A stretch of 15,336 nt of DNA from Prevotella sp. GTDB taxonomy: Bacteria > Bacteroidota > Bacteroidia > Bacteroidales > Bacteroidaceae. The DNA lies in the NCBI GenBank assembly GCA_017632825.1, contig JAGBQP010000112.1, positions 1-15,336 of the forward strand. The letters run 5' to 3'. The notes beneath the pieces were generated by a model. That model was given only the letters and a program-made list of their open reading frames with translations. It had not been told where the DNA came from and ran no database searches. Each line of letters starts with the position of its first letter. Position 1 is the stretch's first letter. The position numbers and the translations under genes are program-made. Positions 4,598 through 15,309 of the stretch are shown in pieces.

Positions 4598-5686
4598 TTA
4601 CTGAATGAACTTCACCTTCGATGCATCACGAGGCTTGGCAGCCGGTTGCTCATCAGGATAACCGATTGCCAGAATGTAGTTAAGTTTGTAACCCTCAGGA
4701 ATGTCGAGTTTATCGAGAAAGAACTTACCATCGGCATTAGAGTTCAGCCATCGTACTGGGCCACCGAGGCAACAAGTGCCAAGGCCCAATGCCTGAGCTG
4801 CCAGCATCATGTTTTCGCCCAGCAGTCCAGCATCGAGATCGCCACCATTTGTCGGAGTGCAGACACAAATCATATTGGGTGAATTGTAAAGTCCGCGGCA
4901 CACTTTGTTAACATCGGCAATGAGCTGCTGGTCTTCCACCACACGGATAATCCACGGCTGGCGATTCACGCCGCTGGGCGCATTGATACCGGCACGAGCA
5001 ACCATTTCCAGCTTTTCATGCTCAACAGGCTTCGCCTGGTATTTTCGGATAGAGCGGCGTTCCATAATGTTGCTCAGCACGGGGTTAACCTCCATGCAGA
5101 TGTCTGCTTCGACAGTAGTCATCTTGTCCGTTGGTTCATAGCGTTTCAGTACGCGGCCGTCGCGCGATACCAGAAACTTGGTGAAGTTCCACTTGATATC
5201 GGTTTTCTTGTCGTATTCAGGATCCTGTTTACGCAGCATGTTGTCCATCATCTTGCCGCGCTGGTCATTGGTGTCAAAACCTCCAAAGCTCTTCTGTGCT
5301 TTCAGCCATGTGTAGAGGGGGGACTCATTGGCACCGTTAACCTCAATCTTGTCGAACTGCGGAAAGTGAATGTCGAAGTTGGCGGTGCAGAACTCGTGAA
5401 TCTCTTGAATGCTACCTGGAGCCTGCTGTCCAAACTGATTACAAGGGAAGTCTAGAATCTCCAAACCTTGGCTGCTGTACTTCTCGTAGAGAGCTTCTAA
5501 CTCTTTGTACTGTGGTGTGAAGCCGCAGCGGGTGGCTGTGTTGACAATCAGTAGCACTTTGCCTTTGTAGTTGGAGAGTGAAACCTCCTGTCCAGCATCG
5601 TCTTTTACCTTGAAATCGTAAATACTCTGTGCTGAAAGCGTCAGCACGCTAATCATTGCCATGAGGCTGAGAAACAATTTGCGCAT
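4598..5686 (-). CDS. exported glutathione-peroxidase / nitroreductase fusion protein
   Basis: 362 residues, two enzymes in one chain. Residues 1-19 form a Sec signal peptide (MRK, hydrophobic core, LSA then Q20); a Gln after the cleavage site is typical of Bacteroidetes signal-peptidase-I substrates. Residues about 22-185 are a glutathione-peroxidase-like thiol peroxidase: peroxidatic C54 in NTATRCGFTPQ, FPCNQFGQQ with tetrad Q88, W166-N167 in WNFTKFLVSRDG, and C100 in the position of the resolving Cys of thioredoxin-dependent members. Residues about 205-362 are an FMN-dependent nitroreductase: RRSIRKY (210-216), NAPSGVNRQPW (235-245), GLLGENMMLAAQALGLGTCCLGG (287-309), and a C-terminal AIGYPDEQPAAKPR. 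I chose the ATG at 5686 because the frame upstream to 5839 runs through the preceding gene and shows no homologous character. It is the last gene of the minus-strand redox cluster. Substrates are unknown. Confidence 0.93.
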   Translation of the reverse strand: MRKLFLSLMAMISVLTLSAQSIYDFKVKDDAGQEVSLSNYKGKVLLIVNTATRCGFTPQYKELEALYEKYSSQGLEILDFPCNQFGQQAPGSIQEIHEFCTANFDIHFPQFDKIEVNGANESPLYTWLKAQKSFGGFDTNDQRGKMMDNMLRKQDPEYDKKTDIKWNFTKFLVSRDGRVLKRYEPTDKMTTVEADICMEVNPVLSNIMERRSIRKYQAKPVEHEKLEMVARAGINAPSGVNRQPWIIRVVEDQQLIADVNKVCRGLYNSPNMICVCTPTNGGDLDAGLLGENMMLAAQALGLGTCCLGGPVRWLNSNADGKFFLDKLDIPEGYKLNYILAIGYPDEQPAAKPRDASKVKFIQ

Positions 5687-5742
5687 ATTATAAATGTTTT
5701 TGTGTTCGTATTTTTGTTTTGGAACTCGTAATAATATGATTG

Positions 5743-6696
5743 TTAAGATACGACATTGATACTTTGGCCGTTTACAAAAGCTTTGACGTTGTCGATGGCT
5801 ATCTGTAGTAGTCGGCGGCGAGCTTCCTTCGTTGCCCATGCTATGTGGGGAGTGATAAACGCATTTGGCTGAGCCAGCAGAGGATTGTTTGCCTTAGGCG
5901 GTTCCTCCGTCAGTACATCAGCACAGAAGGCAGCCAGCCGATTATCTGTCAGCGCATCGCTCACGGCCTGATCATCAACCAATGGCCCTCGGCCAGTATT
6001 GATGAGTATGGCGGTCGGTTTCATCATTCTTATGCTCTTGTCATTGATGAGATGGCGCGTTTCTGGAGTCAGCGGACAGTGCAAGGTTATCACATCGCAC
6101 TCTTCCAGCAGTTCATTTATTGTTTTCTTAGTGATGTACGGAGGCAAATTGTCGACTGTCTTGCTGGTGCAGGCAGCCACGTTCATGCCGAAAGCATTTG
6201 CGATGGCAGCTACGCGTTGGCCGATATTTCCCAAACCAACGATGCCGATTTGCTTTCCTGCCAGTTCCGTCAGGTTCGTGTCCCAATAGCTGAAGTCTGG
6301 ATTCTTCGTCCACCGTCCGTCCCTGTTGAGCAGTGCATAATGTTCGGTACGATTAGTCACTGTCAACAAATGGGCAAAAACCATCTGTGCTACACTCTCA
6401 GTGCTGTAGGCCGGTACGTTAGTCACGACAATGCCCTTTTCATTTGCAGCATTGACATCAACCACATTATAGCCAGTTGCTAGCACTCCAATGTAACGGA
6501 GTCGTGGCAGCTGTTCTATTTCTTCCCTGCCAAGCACCACTTTGTTGGTCAGCACAATCTCTGCGTCGGTAGCTCTTGCTATCGTTTCGCTGGGTGCTGT
6601 TCGTTCGTACATCGTCACCTTGCCGAGCTGTTCCAGCTCTAGCCAAGAGAGGTCGCCGGGGTTGGCCGTATAGCCGTCAAGTATTACGATATTCAT
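5743..6696 (-). CDS. D-2-hydroxyacid dehydrogenase (glycerate / hydroxypyruvate reductase-like)
   Basis: NAD(P)H-dependent reduction of 2-keto acids to D-2-hydroxy acids; cytosolic. 317 residues, normal for the family. The nucleotide-binding Rossmann motif is GLGNIG (154-159), and the catalytic triad is R236 in NTGRGPLVD, E265 in TEEPP and H284 in TPHIAWAT. ATGYNVVDV at 73-81 and NVPAYSTESVAQ at 93-104 are substrate-domain blocks typical of glycerate dehydrogenase (HprA-like) members, so hydroxypyruvate or glyoxylate is the best guess, but specificity cannot be read here. It starts 57 nt after the MarR stop and ends 56 nt before the exported fusion gene, all on the same strand with no terminator or -7 box between, so co-transcription is likely. 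Its link to peroxide defence is unclear. Confidence 0.92.
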   Translation of the reverse strand: MNIVILDGYTANPGDLSWLELEQLGKVTMYERTAPSETIARATDAEIVLTNKVVLGREEIEQLPRLRYIGVLATGYNVVDVNAANEKGIVVTNVPAYSTESVAQMVFAHLLTVTNRTEHYALLNRDGRWTKNPDFSYWDTNLTELAGKQIGIVGLGNIGQRVAAIANAFGMNVAACTSKTVDNLPPYITKKTINELLEECDVITLHCPLTPETRHLINDKSIRMMKPTAILINTGRGPLVDDQAVSDALTDNRLAAFCADVLTEEPPKANNPLLAQPNAFITPHIAWATKEARRRLLQIAIDNVKAFVNGQSINVVS

Positions 6697-7693: not shown

Positions 7694-8236
7694 TTATAAC
7701 ATCTCTTCGATGTCCTTCTCAAAGTCCTTTGGCTCGGTGGTTGGCGCATAGCGCTTGATGGTTTCACCGTCACGCGAGATCAGGAATTTGGTGAAGTTCC
7801 ACAGAATGTCGCTGTCCTTCTCCACACTCTTGCTCAGCGTCTTCAGCATGGTACGTGTTGCCTTGGCCTTCAGTCCTTTGTATTCCTCGGTGGGTGCCTG
7901 TGACTTCAGGTACTCGAAGATGGGCTCGGCAGCGGGGCCGTTCACGTCGGTCTTGCGCATAATCTGGAATGTTACACCGTAGTTCAGCTGGCAGAACTCC
8001 TCAATCTGTGCATCGCCTTCGGGGTCCTGTTCCTTAAACTGGTTGCAAGGGAATCCTACGATGACCAGTCCACGGTCCTTGTACTTTTTGTTCAATTCCT
8101 CCAGTCCTGCAAACTGGGGTGTGAAACCACACTTGCTAGCTGTGTTGACCACCAGTAGCACTTTACCTTGAAACTCAGAGAAATCAATCTCTTTACCGCG
8201 GCTTGAGAAAGCCTTGAAATCATAAATCTTTTGCAT
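7694..8236 (-). CDS. glutathione-peroxidase-family thiol peroxidase (cytosolic)
   Basis: 180-residue enzyme reducing H2O2 or organic hydroperoxides. It has no signal peptide, so it acts in the cytosol. The tetrad is complete: peroxidatic C36 in NTASKCGFTPQ, Q70 in FPCNQFKEQDPEG, and W146-N147 in WNFTKFLISRDG. C82 (EEFCQLNYG) matches the resolving cysteine of thioredoxin-dependent members, so thioredoxin rather than glutathione is the probable reductant. The catalytic Cys is encoded by an ordinary Cys codon, not selenocysteine. The start MQKIYDFKAF at 8236 is the family start; the frame open to 8443 runs through a promoter and is not coding. It is the first gene of the minus-strand redox cluster and a diverged paralogue of the peroxidase domain in the exported fusion at 4598-5686. 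Confidence 0.95.
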   Translation of the reverse strand: MQKIYDFKAFSSRGKEIDFSEFQGKVLLVVNTASKCGFTPQFAGLEELNKKYKDRGLVIVGFPCNQFKEQDPEGDAQIEEFCQLNYGVTFQIMRKTDVNGPAAEPIFEYLKSQAPTEEYKGLKAKATRTMLKTLSKSVEKDSDILWNFTKFLISRDGETIKRYAPTTEPKDFEKDIEEML

Positions 8237-8325
8237 AGTTCTATTTTTTTGTTTGTTAATACTTGCGTCGTTGTTGTCAACCTTGTCGTATATCCTTAAT
8301 TTGTCGTTTGCGACTTTTGACGGTG

Positions 8326-8355
8326 CAAAGATATGAAGTTTTATTTGTATCGCAA
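8326..8355 (-). promoter_or_regulatory. promoter of the redox gene cluster
   Basis: The minus strand has TATCTTTG (8326-8333), an exact -7 consensus, and TTG (8353-8355) with 19 nt between, the normal Bacteroidetes -33/-7 spacing. It lies about 90 nt upstream of the peroxidase start codon. The -33 element is part of the palindrome ATCGC-AA-GCGAT at 8349-8360, which could be a regulator site. Confidence 0.65.
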
Positions 8356-8483
8356 GCGATTTAATGAAAACTTTAAGAACGTTTAACAATAAATCGTGCA
8401 CGACATAATGGCTTTTTTCATCGAAGAAGCTTAAAAAAAACAAATTAAAACGACATAAACAGTCTGTTCTTGAAAAATATTAG

Positions 8484-10702: not shown

Positions 10703-12109
10703 ATGAAACAATTCAACGACAAGAACTTTGTCTTGGAGACTGAGATAGCCCAGGACTTGTATCACAATCATGCGGCCAAGATGCCGATTATTGACTACCA
10801 CTGCCACTTGATTCCTGAAATGGTAGCCAGTGACCATCGCTTCAAGAGCATCACGGAGCTGTGGCTGGGCGGTGACCACTATAAGTGGCGTGCCATGCGT
10901 ACAAATGGCGTTGAGGAGAAATACTGCACGGGCAAAGATACATCAGACTGGGAGAAGTTTGAGAAGTGGGCAGAGACGGTACCCTACACACTGCGTAATC
11001 CCCTGTACCACTGGACACATTTGGAGCTGAAGACGGCCTTTGGCATTGACAAGTTACTGAGCCCCAAGACAGCACGCGAAATATTCGACGAGTGTAATGA
11101 GAAGTTGCAGCAGCCGGAGTTCTCGGCTCGTGGTCTGATGAAGCACTACCACGTGGAATGTGTCTGCACGACAGACGACCCTGTTGACGACCTGCACAAC
11201 CACATTGAGTATGCCGCAAAAAAGGCCCAGGACGATCCCATCATGATTCCTGCCTGGCGTCCCGACAAGGCGATGAATATTGAGAAACCCGAGTTTGCCA
11301 AGTATGTAGAGCAGTTGGCCCAGGTCAGCGGAGTCAGCATCGTGAAGTTTGCCGATATGCTTGATGCCCTGCAGAATCGCCATGACTTCTTTGCCGCTAA
11401 CGGCTGTAAGCTAAGCGACCATGGTATCGAGGAGTTCTACGACGAAGAATATACCGACTCTCAGATAGAGACTATCTTTGAGAAAGCTATGCGCGGCCAA
11501 CAGCTGTCGAACTTGGAGATTCGCCAATATAAAAACTGCTTCCTGACCCGTATGGCCGAGATGGACGCTGACAGCGACTGGACTCAGCAGTTCCACTACG
11601 GAGCTATCCGCGACAACAACACGGCCATGTTTAATCAGTTAGGTCCCGATACAGGCTTCGACAGCATTGGTGAGTTCAATACGGCTAAGGCTATGTCGAA
11701 GTTCTTGAACAACCTGAACAGCGAGGGCAAGCTTACACGTACCATATTATATACGCTGAACCCTTGTGCCAATGAGGTGATTGCCACCATGCTTGGCAAC
11801 TTCCAGGGAGGTGAGCCTGGTAAGATACAGTTTGGCTCCGGTTGGTGGTTCAACGATCAGATGGACGGTATGGTTCGACAGATGAATGCCCTTTCTGTAC
11901 TCGGCCTGCTGAGCCGCTTCGTGGGTATGCTTACCGATAGCCGCTCGTTCCTAAGCTATCCTCGCCACGAGTACTTCCGTCGCATACTCTGTAACCTGCT
12001 GGGCAACGACGTGGAGAAGGGCCTGCTGCCCGACGACCGCGAACTGCTGGGCAAGATGGTCGAGGACATCTCTTACAACAACGCCCGTCGCTACTTTAAG
12101 TTCTATTAA
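10703..12109 (+). CDS. uxaC: glucuronate (uronate) isomerase
   Basis: Isomerises D-glucuronate to D-fructuronate and D-galacturonate to D-tagaturonate, the first step of uronic-acid catabolism; cytosolic, amidohydrolase-like fold. 468 residues, the normal length. Recognised by the N-terminus FVLETEIAQDLYHNHAAKMP (9-28), IDYHCHLIPEM (30-40) with metal-site-like H33 and H35, ITELWLGGDHYKWRAMR about 20 residues on, ECVCTTDDP at about 151-159, and the C-terminal SRSFLSYPRHEYFRRILC block. No uxuA, uxuB, kdgK or polysaccharide-utilisation genes are next to it, so it appears to be a single-gene transcript from the promoter shared with ansA, and it is closed by the hairpin at 12142-12180. Confidence 0.96.
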   Translation: MKQFNDKNFVLETEIAQDLYHNHAAKMPIIDYHCHLIPEMVASDHRFKSITELWLGGDHYKWRAMRTNGVEEKYCTGKDTSDWEKFEKWAETVPYTLRNPLYHWTHLELKTAFGIDKLLSPKTAREIFDECNEKLQQPEFSARGLMKHYHVECVCTTDDPVDDLHNHIEYAAKKAQDDPIMIPAWRPDKAMNIEKPEFAKYVEQLAQVSGVSIVKFADMLDALQNRHDFFAANGCKLSDHGIEEFYDEEYTDSQIETIFEKAMRGQQLSNLEIRQYKNCFLTRMAEMDADSDWTQQFHYGAIRDNNTAMFNQLGPDTGFDSIGEFNTAKAMSKFLNNLNSEGKLTRTILYTLNPCANEVIATMLGNFQGGEPGKIQFGSGWWFNDQMDGMVRQMNALSVLGLLSRFVGMLTDSRSFLSYPRHEYFRRILCNLLGNDVEKGLLPDDRELLGKMVEDISYNNARRYFKFY

Positions 12110-12141
12110 AGAACGTTTGTTAAAACACTTAGACGAAATAA

Positions 12142-12180
12142 AAAAAATCGGCGAAGCCTGCACGGGTTCGCCGATTTTTT
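12142..12180. terminator. strong bidirectional terminator after uxaC
   Basis: Perfect 14-bp inverted repeat: AAAAAATCGGCGAA (12142-12155) and TTCGCCGATTTTTT (12167-12180), with an 11-nt loop. An A-run on one side and T-run on the other make it able to stop transcripts in both directions. It starts 32 nt after the uxaC stop and ends two bases before the next -7 box. Confidence 0.92.
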
Positions 12181-12182
12181 CG

Positions 12183-12190
12183 TACCTTTG
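12183..12190 (+). promoter_or_regulatory. -7 box of the promoter for the small ORF and probably glmS-carA
   Basis: TACCTTTG fits TAnnTTTG exactly. It lies about 200 nt before glmS and 26 nt before the small ORF at 12217. No clear -33 TTTG; its upstream DNA is occupied by the uxaC terminator stem. No other -7 match was seen between here and glmS. Confidence 0.6.
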
Positions 12191-12216
12191 CAGCCGGAAA
12201 TCAACAAAAAGAAGAA

Positions 12217-12330
12217 ATGATGACAAATAAGCCGATGTCTCCAACCATGCTGACAGCTGCTGTAACAGTTCAAAGCAGTTGCGGGCGCTTCGTCGCTTTG
12301 ACGTCGCATTTGTCTAAAAAAATGAAATAA
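12217..12330 (+). CDS. 37-residue small ORF in the glmS leader (leader peptide or small protein)
   Basis: Reads MMTNKPMSPTMLTAAVTVQS, then a further 17 residues ending SKKMK, and stops with TAA at 12328-12330. Translation is plausible: it begins with two ATG codons after an A/G-rich stretch (aaaaagaagaa), the usual Bacteroidetes initiation context, about 20 nt after the expected transcription start. It is rich in Ser, Thr and Val with a basic C-terminus, has one Cys, and no membrane segment or recognised family. The stop codon is one base before the left arm of the terminator at 12332-12368. Inside it, TCAAAGC (12270-12276) and GCTTTGA (12295-12301) can pair, so the RNA itself may be structured. 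It could be an attenuator peptide for glmS, an independent small protein, or coincidental. Confidence 0.5.
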   Translation: MMTNKPMSPTMLTAAVTVQSSCGRFVALTSHLSKKMK

Positions 12331-12331
12331 C

Positions 12332-12368
12332 AAAGAGAGGTTGAGATTTATTCTCAATCTCTTTTTTT
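12332..12368 (+). terminator. intrinsic terminator or attenuator between the small ORF and glmS
   Basis: AAAGAGA (12332-12338) and TTGAGA (12341-12346) pair with TCTCAA (12352-12357) and TCTCTTT (12358-12364), with a bulged GG and a 5-nt loop, and the T-run continues to 12368. It lies only 22 nt before the glmS ATG and after the only promoter seen, so transcripts must read through it to reach glmS. Confidence 0.72.
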
Positions 12369-12390
12369 AGGTACAAACAAATAGAAGAAT

Positions 12391-14235
12391 ATGTGCGGAA
12401 TAGTCGGATATATAGGCAAGAAGGAAGCCTTCCCAATATTGATAAAGGGGCTTCGGCGGCTGGAGTACAGAGGATACGACTCGGCAGGTGTTGCCCTGTT
12501 AAACGAGAACGGCGAGTTGAACGTATGTAAAACAAAAGGAAAAGTCGATAACCTGGTGGATTATTGCCAAGATAAGGATGTGTCTGGCCACGTCGGTATT
12601 GCCCATACCCGATGGGCCACACACGGCGAACCATCGGCACGCAACGCACACCCGCACTACTCAGAGTCGCGCAATCTGGCTATCATCCATAACGGTATCA
12701 TCGAGAACTATGCCGAACTGAAGGCTAACCTTCAGAAGAAAGGCATCGCATTCCAGTCGGACACCGATACCGAGGTGGTGGTACAGCTGGTAGAATACAT
12801 CATGAACAAGAAGCAGGTAGATTTGCTGACTGCTGTTCAGGTGGCTCTGTATCAGGTTATTGGCGCTTATGCCATAGCCATCATCGATAAGCGTGAACCA
12901 CAGCAAATAATAGCAGCCCGCAAGCAGAGCCCACTGGTAGTTGGCATCGGCGATGGCGAGTTCTTCCTCGGTTCCGATGCCAGCCCTATTATTGAATATA
13001 CTGACAAGGTGGTGTATCTTGAGGACGAGAACATCGCCGTCATCCGTCTCGACAGCGAACTGAAAGTCGTGAGCCTACTAGGTGAGGAGCAGGAGACGGT
13101 GGTGAAGCATGTGGACATTGACCTGGGACAGATAGAAAAGGGTGGTTATCCGCACTTCATGCTGAAGGAAATCTTTGAGCAGCCCGAGTGCCTGACGAAC
13201 TGTATGCGTGGCCGTGTTAATATCAATGGCGACCACGTGACGCTCAGCGCCCTGATCGACCACCGCCGTCAGCTGCTGAGTGCCAAGCGTGTACTCATCG
13301 TGGCTTGCGGCACGTCGTGGCACGCTGGTCTCATTGGCAAGCAACTCATTGAGACCTTCTGCCGCATACCCGTCGAGGTGGAGTATGCCTCGGAGTTCCG
13401 CTACCGCAATCCCGTTGTCGGTAAGGACGATGTCGTGATTGCTATCTCGCAGAGTGGCGAGACTGCCGACACGCTGGCCGCCGTACAACTGGCCAAGGAG
13501 CGTGGCGCCTTCATCTATGGCATCTGTAACGCCATCGGCAGCAGTATACCCCGTGCTACGGATACGGGTACCTATATCCATGTAGGCCCTGAGATTGGTG
13601 TGGCTTCCACAAAAGCCTTTACCGGTCAGGTGACGGTGCTGACCATGATAGCACTGGCTATGGGCGAGGCACGTGGTACCATCGACCGCGACGAATACCT
13701 GAAGGTTGTGAAAGGACTGAACGAGATTCCCGATAAGATTCGTGAGGTGCTGAAGGCCAACGACCGTGTGAAGGATTTGGCTCGCATCTTCACCTATGCC
13801 CATAACTTCCTGTATCTGGGACGCGGCTTCTCATACCCCGTGGCGCTTGAAGGTGCCCTGAAGCTGAAGGAAATCTCCTATATTCATGCCGAGGGATATC
13901 CCGCTGCCGAGATGAAGCACGGCCCCATTGCCCTCATCGACAGCGATATGCCTGTGGTAGTCATCGCCACACATAACGCCATGTACGAGAAGGTGCTGTC
14001 GAATATCCAGGAAATCAAGGCCCGCAAGGGTAGGGTGATAGCCCTTGTGTCGAAGGGCGACAAGACGATATCAGCCATCGCCGACGAGGTGATAGAGCTG
14101 CCCGACGTTCAGGAGTGTCTGGAGCCGCTGGTGGCTACCGTCCCCTTACAGCTTCTTGCCTACCATGTGGCAGTCTGCAAGGGCATGGACGTCGATCAAC
14201 CAAGAAACTTAGCAAAATCAGTGACAGTAGAATAA
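12391..14235 (+). CDS. glmS: glucosamine-6-phosphate synthase (isomerising glutamine amidotransferase)
   Basis: Makes glucosamine-6-phosphate from fructose-6-phosphate and glutamine, the entry step to UDP-GlcNAc for peptidoglycan and lipopolysaccharide; cytosolic. 614 residues, close to the E. coli enzyme. The N-terminal Ntn-type glutaminase domain (about 1-220) begins MCGIVGYIG with nucleophile C2, and has LEYRGYDSAG (24-33), HTRWATHGEPS (72-82) and HNGIIENY (100-107). Two SIS sugar-isomerase domains follow, with VACGTSWHAG near 309 and ISQSGETADT near 352. The C-terminus LAKSVTVE is the conserved tail of the family. Its stop codon abuts the carA ATG with no gap, implying translational coupling. 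The leader holds a small ORF and an intrinsic terminator. Confidence 0.97.
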   Translation: MCGIVGYIGKKEAFPILIKGLRRLEYRGYDSAGVALLNENGELNVCKTKGKVDNLVDYCQDKDVSGHVGIAHTRWATHGEPSARNAHPHYSESRNLAIIHNGIIENYAELKANLQKKGIAFQSDTDTEVVVQLVEYIMNKKQVDLLTAVQVALYQVIGAYAIAIIDKREPQQIIAARKQSPLVVGIGDGEFFLGSDASPIIEYTDKVVYLEDENIAVIRLDSELKVVSLLGEEQETVVKHVDIDLGQIEKGGYPHFMLKEIFEQPECLTNCMRGRVNINGDHVTLSALIDHRRQLLSAKRVLIVACGTSWHAGLIGKQLIETFCRIPVEVEYASEFRYRNPVVGKDDVVIAISQSGETADTLAAVQLAKERGAFIYGICNAIGSSIPRATDTGTYIHVGPEIGVASTKAFTGQVTVLTMIALAMGEARGTIDRDEYLKVVKGLNEIPDKIREVLKANDRVKDLARIFTYAHNFLYLGRGFSYPVALEGALKLKEISYIHAEGYPAAEMKHGPIALIDSDMPVVVIATHNAMYEKVLSNIQEIKARKGRVIALVSKGDKTISAIADEVIELPDVQECLEPLVATVPLQLLAYHVAVCKGMDVDQPRNLAKSVTVE

Positions 14236-15309
14236 ATGAAAGATGTGACACTGGTCCTGTCTGACGGGACAACATTCAAAGGTAAGAGCTTCGGCTACGA
14301 GAAAGCCGTTGCAGGAGAAGTTGTTTTCAATACAGCGATGATGGGTTATCCCGAATCGCTGACCGACCCCTCGTATGCCGGTCAGCTGATGACGCTAACC
14401 TTTCCGCTTGTGGGTAACTATGGTGTGCCACCCTTCACGTTCGAGGAGAATGGCCTGCCGACGTTTATGGAGAGTGACCGAATCTATGCTTCGGCTATCA
14501 TCGTGGCCGACTACAGCGAGCAGTACTCCCATTGGAACGCTAAGGAGAGCCTGGCCGACTGGCTGAAGCGTGAGCAGGTGCCCGGTGTGACGGGCATTGA
14601 CACCCGTCAGCTGACAAAGGTGCTTCGTGAGCATGGCGTGATGATGGGTAAGCTGGTGTTCGATGGTGATGATGCACCAATAGAGGCCGAAGACTATGGT
14701 GCCATCAACTGGGTTGAGCGTGTTAGCTGCAAGGATGTCATTCGCTACAACGAGGGTGCCGGCAAGAAGGTGGTGCTTGTCGATTGCGGCGTGAAAGCCA
14801 ACATTATACGCTGCCTCGTCAACCGTGGTGTTGAGGTGATTCGCGTTCCTTGGAACTATGACTATACGCAGATGGCCTTCGACGGTCTTTTCCTGGCTAA
14901 CGGTCCTGGCGACCCAGACAAATGTGTGGATGCTGTCGAGATACTGAAGAAGCAGATGTCCCAGAGCCGCAAGCCCATCTGTGGTATCTGCATGGGCAAC
15001 CAGCTGTTGGCAAAAGCTGGTGGCGCGTCTATCTATAAGCTGAAGTATGGTCACCGCTCGCATAACCAGCCGGTGCGCGAGGTAGGAACCAACCGCTGCT
15101 ATGTCACGTCGCAGAATCACGGCTATGCCGTTGACGCCTCGACCCTGGGCAGCGAATGGCGCGAGCTGTTTGTCAATATGAACGACGGCTCTAACGAGGG
15201 TATCCGTCACCAGACGAATCCCTGGTTCTCCAGCCAGTTCCATCCTGAGGCCTGCTCAGGTCCTGTTGACACCGAACTTATGTTTGACCGTTTCATTGAA
15301 GCACTGTAA
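14236..15309 (+). CDS. carA: carbamoyl-phosphate synthase small (glutaminase) subunit
   Basis: Hydrolyses glutamine and passes ammonia to CarB for carbamoyl phosphate, used in pyrimidine and arginine synthesis. 357 residues. The N-terminal domain has the family block GEVVFNTAMMGYPESLTDPSYAGQ, residues 27-50, and GVTGIDTRQLTKVLREHG (117-134). The class I glutamine amidotransferase domain has LANGPGDP (220-227), nucleophile C252 in CGICMGNQLLA, and H336 and E338 in FHPEACSGP. These are exactly 17 positions before E. coli C269, H353 and E355, supporting the start and an intact active site. GICMGNQ replaces the more common GICLGHQ. It begins immediately after the glmS stop and is followed after 19 nt by a probable carB start. 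Confidence 0.97.
   Translation: MKDVTLVLSDGTTFKGKSFGYEKAVAGEVVFNTAMMGYPESLTDPSYAGQLMTLTFPLVGNYGVPPFTFEENGLPTFMESDRIYASAIIVADYSEQYSHWNAKESLADWLKREQVPGVTGIDTRQLTKVLREHGVMMGKLVFDGDDAPIEAEDYGAINWVERVSCKDVIRYNEGAGKKVVLVDCGVKANIIRCLVNRGVEVIRVPWNYDYTQMAFDGLFLANGPGDPDKCVDAVEILKKQMSQSRKPICGICMGNQLLAKAGGASIYKLKYGHRSHNQPVREVGTNRCYVTSQNHGYAVDASTLGSEWRELFVNMNDGSNEGIRHQTNPWFSSQFHPEACSGPVDTELMFDRFIEAL

What the first reader, a model, noticed from the sequence alone, without database searches (positions are those of the whole stretch)
12183..12390. glmS leader with a small ORF ending at an intrinsic terminator
Seen: a -7 box, an A/G-rich initiation region, a 37-codon ORF whose stop is one base before a terminator stem, and glmS only 22 nt beyond the T-run with no other promoter visible. 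Inference: a ribosome on the last codons or the stop would cover the left arm of the stem, so translation of the ORF could set readthrough into glmS-carA. This would be an attenuation control of amino-sugar synthesis unlike the glmS ribozyme of Gram-positives. Alternatively the ORF is a short independent gene.
Basis: partly seen in the sequence, partly recalled or inferred. Interest (0 to 1): 0.72.

Follow-up and report, generated by a model that had tools for sequence, protein, structure and literature searches.

The report
Relic export gene before glmS
The small reading frame in front of glmS is the worn-down remnant of a deleted polysaccharide-export gene, and the terminator-like hairpin behind it is the old boundary between that gene and glmS, which glmS transcription apparently still has to cross.

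Summary
The anatomy is real: -7 box 12183-12190, 37-codon ORF 12217-12330, strong hairpin plus T7 starting 1-2 nt after the stop, glmS ATG at 12391. The ORF is not a dedicated leader peptide. In sister lineage G035 the same promoter precedes a 265-codon wza-like lipoprotein gene that ends at a near-identical hairpin before glmS. The window lacks about 690 nt of it, in frame. The kept C-terminus differs at 6 of 11 near-invariant residues: a decaying relic. In a non-random set of 127 distinct glmS upstream regions, this hairpin type occurs in 24 of 36 with wza in front (10 of 21 in loci not picked for an upstream match or by the hairpin), in the window and in G297, which lost wza separately, and in none of 89 others. 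None of the 24 has a TAnnTTTG box within 150 nt before glmS; 69 of the 89 do. So glmS-carA probably depends on read-through from the wza promoter. Stop-to-stem distance is a median 6 nt against 20 nt at other gene ends, the geometry at which ribosomes suppress terminators in E. coli (compare rph-pyrE). Translation-coupled attenuation at the ancestral junction is plausible but untested, and it is not a conserved glmS control.

The parts
10703..12109 (+). uxaC (glucuronate isomerase), upstream neighbour
   Evidence: Pfam UxaC 663 bits; same neighbour upstream of wza-glmS or glmS in many of the loci
12144..12178 (+). terminator-like hairpin after uxaC
   Evidence: -20.9 kcal/mol with T-run; similar ones in L004, L104, L109, L125, L126, L128, L132
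12183..12190 (+). -7 box TACCTTTG: ancestral wza promoter, now the only visible promoter for glmS-carA
   Evidence: same box upstream of wza in L084; a TAnnTTTG upstream of wza in 35 of 35 testable wza loci
12217..12330 (+). 37-codon ORF = in-frame deletion relic of a wza-like polysaccharide-export lipoprotein gene (front part up to about 12285, rear part from about 12291; exact junction not determined)
   Evidence: DNA homology to G035 at 12141-12209 and 12298-12368, 781 nt apart there and 89 nt apart here; alignments; C-terminal decay
12332..12366 (+). intercistronic terminator-like hairpin inherited from the wza|glmS junction
   Evidence: model R1 55.1 bits in the window (the window is one of the 17 sequences R1 was built from); covariation
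12362..12368 (+). T-run of the hairpin
12391..14235 (+). glmS
   Evidence: Pfam SIS, GATase_6
14236..15309 (+). carA, directly abutting glmS
   Evidence: Pfam CPSase_sm_chain

Best explanation
Ancestral layout: promoter, wza-like polysaccharide-export lipoprotein gene, a terminator-like hairpin a few nt after its stop codon, then glmS-carA. In the window's lineage an in-frame deletion of about 690 nt removed nearly all of wza but left its promoter, start, front end, last codons, stop and hairpin. The 37-codon ORF is that relic and is decaying. glmS-carA is now transcribed from the old wza promoter and must read through the inherited hairpin. Shown: homology, deletion, decay, recurrence of the hairpin at the wza junction, lack of the promoter motif after it. 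Inferred: that the hairpin is a partial terminator, that read-through supplies glmS, and that a ribosome finishing wza (or the relic ORF) lowers termination because the stop lies 1-2 nt from the stem.
For: G035/L084: uxaC - TACCTTTG - 265-aa wza - hairpin - glmS; G141/L101 likewise. Window and G035 pair in a glmS tree of 30 chosen loci, support 1.000. Only the two ends of the wza segment align to the window. In 29 intact wza loci of at least 65% identity the C-terminus SLTSLLYNILK/R is nearly invariant; the window reads ALTSHLSKKMK, 6 of 11 different. R1-type hairpin: 24 of 36 wza loci, 2 of 91 without wza. TAnnTTTG within 150 nt before glmS: 0 of those 24, against 69 of the 89 wza-less, non-relic loci; before wza 35 of 35. 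Two genomes with glmS on another contig have wza - hairpin - carA. G297 lost wza separately and keeps promoter + hairpin + glmS. Stop-to-stem median 6 nt (20 wza loci) versus 20 nt (60 gene ends), rank test p = 6e-9. In E. coli, moving a stop from 28 to 5 bp before a terminator cut its efficiency from ~90% to <10% (PMC4824070, passages).
Against: 12 of 36 wza-glmS loci lack this hairpin at E 0.01; in loci not picked for an upstream match or by the hairpin it is 11 of 21. In L011 and L233 only 10 and 5 nt separate the wza stop from glmS, and L184 and L197 have other palindromes without a T-run. No RNA data. Promoters not matching TAnnTTTG would be missed. The loci are related, so the rank test and the counts are not independent events. 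No whole genome is held for the window, so another wza copy cannot be excluded.
Confidence: 0.75

Rival explanations
1. Dedicated leader-peptide attenuator of glmS: the 37-codon ORF was selected to sense translation and set read-through.
For: ORF open, A/G-rich initiation region, stop 1-2 nt from the stem, no promoter motif after the hairpin.
Against: ORF is homologous to both ends of wza; no match to the peptide in 13 genomes and only three weak ones in 299; 6 of 11 near-invariant C-terminal residues changed; in G297 the remaining ORF is 4 codons in another frame (frame read by eye); no run of one codon type in the translation.
Confidence: 0.08
2. The hairpin is an ordinary terminator and glmS-carA has its own promoter that does not match TAnnTTTG.
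For: Strong hairpin with T-run. Terminator-like hairpins between co-directional genes are not rare: 10 of 80 pairs in the G273 sample and 10 of 76 in G129, 6 and 1 of them without the box after it. 20 of the 89 wza-less, non-relic loci also show no box at the place tested, so the motif test has misses or those genes are read from further upstream.
Against: In 19 of 20 wza loci scored only 24-54 nt lie between stem and glmS start (L207: 157) and 25 nt in the window, leaving little room. 0 of 24 hairpin loci have the box while 69 of 89 wza-less ones do. Three relocated wza orthologues (G003, G094, G216) lack the hairpin, so it does not simply travel with wza.
Confidence: 0.2
3. The hairpin is an RNA processing or 3'-end stabilising element that sets the ratio of wza to glmS-carA mRNA, not a terminator.
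For: Some wza-glmS loci have other palindromes without a T-run in the gap (L184, L197). Stem-loop control of operon stoichiometry is described (PMC8219983, search listing with start of abstract).
Against: All 17 hairpins of alignment A3 have a T-run of five or more right after the stem, and lower stem and T-run are the most conserved columns.
Confidence: 0.13
4. Assembly artefact: the wza deletion is a mis-join in the window's contig.
For: No genome is held for the window, so it cannot be checked.
Against: The retained end has decayed at residues nearly invariant in 29 intact genes, which takes time after the loss; G297 shows a comparable loss.
Confidence: 0.03

Closest known systems
E. coli rph-pyrE attenuator
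   Same: Full gene upstream whose stop-codon position relative to an attenuator loop sets expression of the following biosynthetic gene (PMC2784333, passages).
   Different: Here no regulatory signal is known, the phylum is different, the upstream gene is a wza-like export gene and in the window only a relic; no expression data.
E. coli pyrBI attenuator (leader ORF with a terminator at its end)
   Same: Short ORF at a terminator ahead of a biosynthetic operon; a close ribosome suppresses termination (named in PMC4824070 passages; further details recalled).
   Different: The 37-codon ORF is a decaying relic, not conserved; pausing and nucleotide response untested.
glmS ribozyme of Gram-positive bacteria (recalled)
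   Same: Both lie upstream of glmS.
   Different: No Rfam match in the window; a simple hairpin with a T-run.
Leader-peptide attenuators of the trp/his type (recalled)
   Same: Small ORF before a terminator.
   Different: No regulatory codon run and no competing antiterminator in the minimum-energy fold of the leader.

Membership tests
rph-pyrE type stop-proximal attenuator | Upstream stop codon within a few nt of a terminator stem | tested here: met
   Window 2 nt; 20 wza loci 3-16 nt, median 6; 60 gene ends median 20
rph-pyrE type stop-proximal attenuator | Downstream gene transcribed through the terminator, no promoter between | tested here: inconclusive
   TAnnTTTG within 150 nt before glmS in 0 of 24 hairpin loci, but no transcript data
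rph-pyrE type stop-proximal attenuator | Read-through depends on ribosome-polymerase distance and on nucleotide supply | not testable with these tools
   Needs reporters and RNA measurements
Leader-peptide attenuator (trp/his type) | Run of codons for the end product in the leader ORF | tested here: not met
   Translation MMTNKPMSPTMLTAAVTVQSSCGRFVALTSHLSKKMK has no such run; one glutamine only
Leader-peptide attenuator (trp/his type) | Leader peptide conserved in relatives upstream of the same gene | tested here: not met
   0 of 13 genomes; 3 of 299 genomes with weak matches, E 0.013 to 0.051
glmS ribozyme | Match to the Rfam family | tested here: not met
   0 matches in the window at gathering score
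wza-like polysaccharide-export gene (relic of) | Homology to both ends of an intact wza gene in the same neighbourhood and frame | tested here: met
   frame read by eye. The name wza-like is my recognition of the protein; no family search was run on the intact protein

The most novel reading that the evidence does not exclude
The wza|glmS-carA junction of this Prevotella-type group is a translation-coupled attenuator: ribosomes finishing wza suppress the stop-proximal terminator, so amino-sugar and carbamoyl-phosphate synthesis follows export-gene translation. After loss of wza, at least two lineages (window, G297) kept promoter and hairpin, and in the window the truncated in-frame ORF still places a terminating ribosome on the stem, turning a gene relic into a leader ORF.
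Probability: 0.22. Interest if true: 0.62.

Novelty: new member of a known kind. Interest (0 to 1): 0.42.

Why it matters
It shows how an apparent leader-peptide attenuator can arise by deletion of a gene from an operon, and warns that small ORFs ending at a hairpin can be relics. The recurrent stop-proximal hairpin between wza and glmS-carA offers a concrete case in which ribosome-dependent read-through could be tested in Bacteroidota. Five searches of the open library listed no paper on such control of glmS there; B. thetaiotaomicron leaders with short ORFs resembling attenuation leaders have been noted (PMC7366714, passages).

Tried and rejected
Glucosamine ribozyme or other known RNA: none at gathering score. 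Peptide family: no Pfam match; peptide too short for the large protein search. Phage origin: no match in the phage collection. Mobile repeat carrying ORF + hairpin: no contiguous copy in 199 genomes and no good peptide match in 299. Hairpin as wza's own terminator travelling with the gene: three relocated orthologues lack it. Hairpin as general glmS leader: absent from 89 wza-less loci. Hits of model R1 outside glmS/carA that I looked at (e.g. L152, L155, L157) have neither glmS, wza nor uxaC beside them; some are matched on both strands, as two-way terminators would be. The first covariation count held six rows that were the same hairpins on the other strand; I repeated it without them. A stricter first version of the gene-end control (G273 only, T5) gave 22 terminators, median 18 nt. 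Papers: the B. thetaiotaomicron atlas papers do not mention glmS in the held text (passages only).

Full report
Observation. The hairpin is more stable than all 200 shuffles (z = -6.2), although the simple consensus scan did not list it. TAnnTTTG is the -7 consensus deduced for Bacteroides (PMC7366714, passages). carA follows glmS without a gap.

Origin of the ORF. A scan of genome contigs with GlmS kept the best 80 loci; the closest are Prevotella MAGs. In 398 genomes of the genus of G004, 356 matched window 11700-13200; the best, G035, matched from 12298 onward and, in a separate piece, the uxaC end. Its locus L084 reads uxaC - TACCTTTG - wza-like gene of 265 codons - hairpin - glmS. The name wza-like is my recognition; I ran no family search on that protein. 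A search with 12141-12390 among 199 genomes gave G035 as best, matching 1-69 and 158-228 of the query, 781 nt apart there and 89 nt apart in the window, hence about 690 nt missing. The ORF's front aligns to the signal-peptide end (both hold SSCG) and its last codons and stop to the wza end, in one frame (frame read by eye). L101 (G141) has the same layout as L084.

Decay. In 29 intact wza loci with at least 65% identity the last residues are nearly invariant (SLTSLLYNILK; R for the last K in five, an extra K in four, S for T in two, one M); the window has ALTSHLSKKMK, 6 of 11 different. The peptide had no match in 13 genomes of close loci and three weak ones, not followed up, in 299 genus genomes. 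I read the ORF as a relic. An assembly error would not explain the decay.

Survey of glmS upstream regions. I gave the window and 129 loci; three were dropped as duplicates (L087, L189, L236), leaving 127. Classes: wza in front 36, uxaC directly in front 22 (window and G297 included), other 69. The set is not random. By source: loci, 2 of 6 wza loci with the hairpin; loci, 4 of 5; regions, many of them picked because their match reached upstream of glmS, 10 of 11, taken down the listing, 2 of 8, or 4 of 10 with the two dropped duplicates; loci, found by the hairpin model itself, 6 of 6 (two of them the duplicates just named). So 24 of 36 in all, and 10 of 21 where neither an upstream match nor the hairpin guided the choice. 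Model R1 was built from 17 hairpins, window included. Hairpins were scored (23 loci; L120/G356); 12 wza loci are negative at E 0.01. In the 89 wza-less, non-relic loci R1 finds nothing at the glmS upstream site (one weak hit elsewhere in L003). TAnnTTTG within 150 nt before glmS: 0 of the 24, 69 of the 89 (after the last terminator where there is one); 20 of the 89 have none. Upstream of wza: 35 of 35 testable, L122 being too short.

What the hairpin goes with. In G122 and G124, where glmS lies on another contig, wza - hairpin is followed directly by carA. In G003, G094 and G216 a wza orthologue of 71-72% identity sits in another neighbourhood without the hairpin after it. So it marks the junction of wza with the glmS/carA unit. 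G297 has lost wza, keeps promoter, a 4-codon ORF in another frame, the tail of the wza end and the hairpin, and has no wza elsewhere at E 1e-10. In a glmS tree of 30 chosen loci the window pairs with G035 (support 1.000) and G297 with G224 (0.734; with G116 0.988), all three neighbours with intact wza, so the two losses look separate. In 20 other loci with uxaC directly before glmS the hairpin is gone too.

Structure and geometry. On 25 hairpins read on the right strand, 97.1% of cells are paired, 5 of 11 pairs have two-sided changes (2 of 500 shuffles reach that; covariation score 0 of 500), and pairing drops to 57.5% or less when slid; the alignment was fitted to the model, and the 17-row MAFFT alignment also gave 5 of 11. 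Stop-to-stem distance: 20 wza loci scored by the script (19 of the 24 hairpin loci plus L207, which is not R1-type) median 6 nt, range 3-16; 60 terminators at gene ends in 800 kb of G273 and G129 median 20 nt, 9 of 60 at 12 nt or less, one of them the wza junction of G273 itself; p = 6e-9, not corrected for relatedness. Internal terminators are not rare as such: 10 of 80 and 10 of 76 co-directional pairs, 6 and 1 of them without a box after it.

Mechanism. In E. coli a terminator a few bp behind a gene is almost fully repressed; moving a stop from 28 to 5 bp before it lowered efficiency from ~90% to <10% (PMC4824070, abstract and passages). rph-pyrE is a similar design with a full gene upstream (PMC2784333, passages). 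By that analogy, translation of wza, and in the window of the relic ORF, would favour read-through into glmS-carA. Whether ribosomes trail polymerase closely in this phylum I do not know; one search for it listed nothing usable.

Against. A third of the wza-glmS loci seen, and about half of those picked without regard to the hairpin, do without it; some have palindromes lacking a T-run, and L011 and L233 have only 10 and 5 nt between wza stop and glmS. The control, if any, is dispensable. Nothing here measures RNA.

Noticed in passing
L162 (G122) and L156 (G124): wza - hairpin is followed directly by carA, while the glmS match of these genomes lies on another contig.
   Followed up: partly
L184, L197, L085, L227 (wza-glmS gaps): Instead of the R1-type hairpin there are longer, repeat-like palindromes, two of them (L184, L197) without a T-run; L101 has repeat-like sequence after uxaC.
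   Followed up: no
window 4598-5839 (-) and 7694-8443 (-): Two ORFs whose translations look, by eye, like glutathione peroxidases; the first seems fused to a nitroreductase-like part. Not tested.
   Followed up: no
window 12144-12178: Hairpin with an A-run before and a T-run after it at the uxaC end, directly in front of the -7 box; the same arrangement recurs in several relatives.
   Followed up: partly
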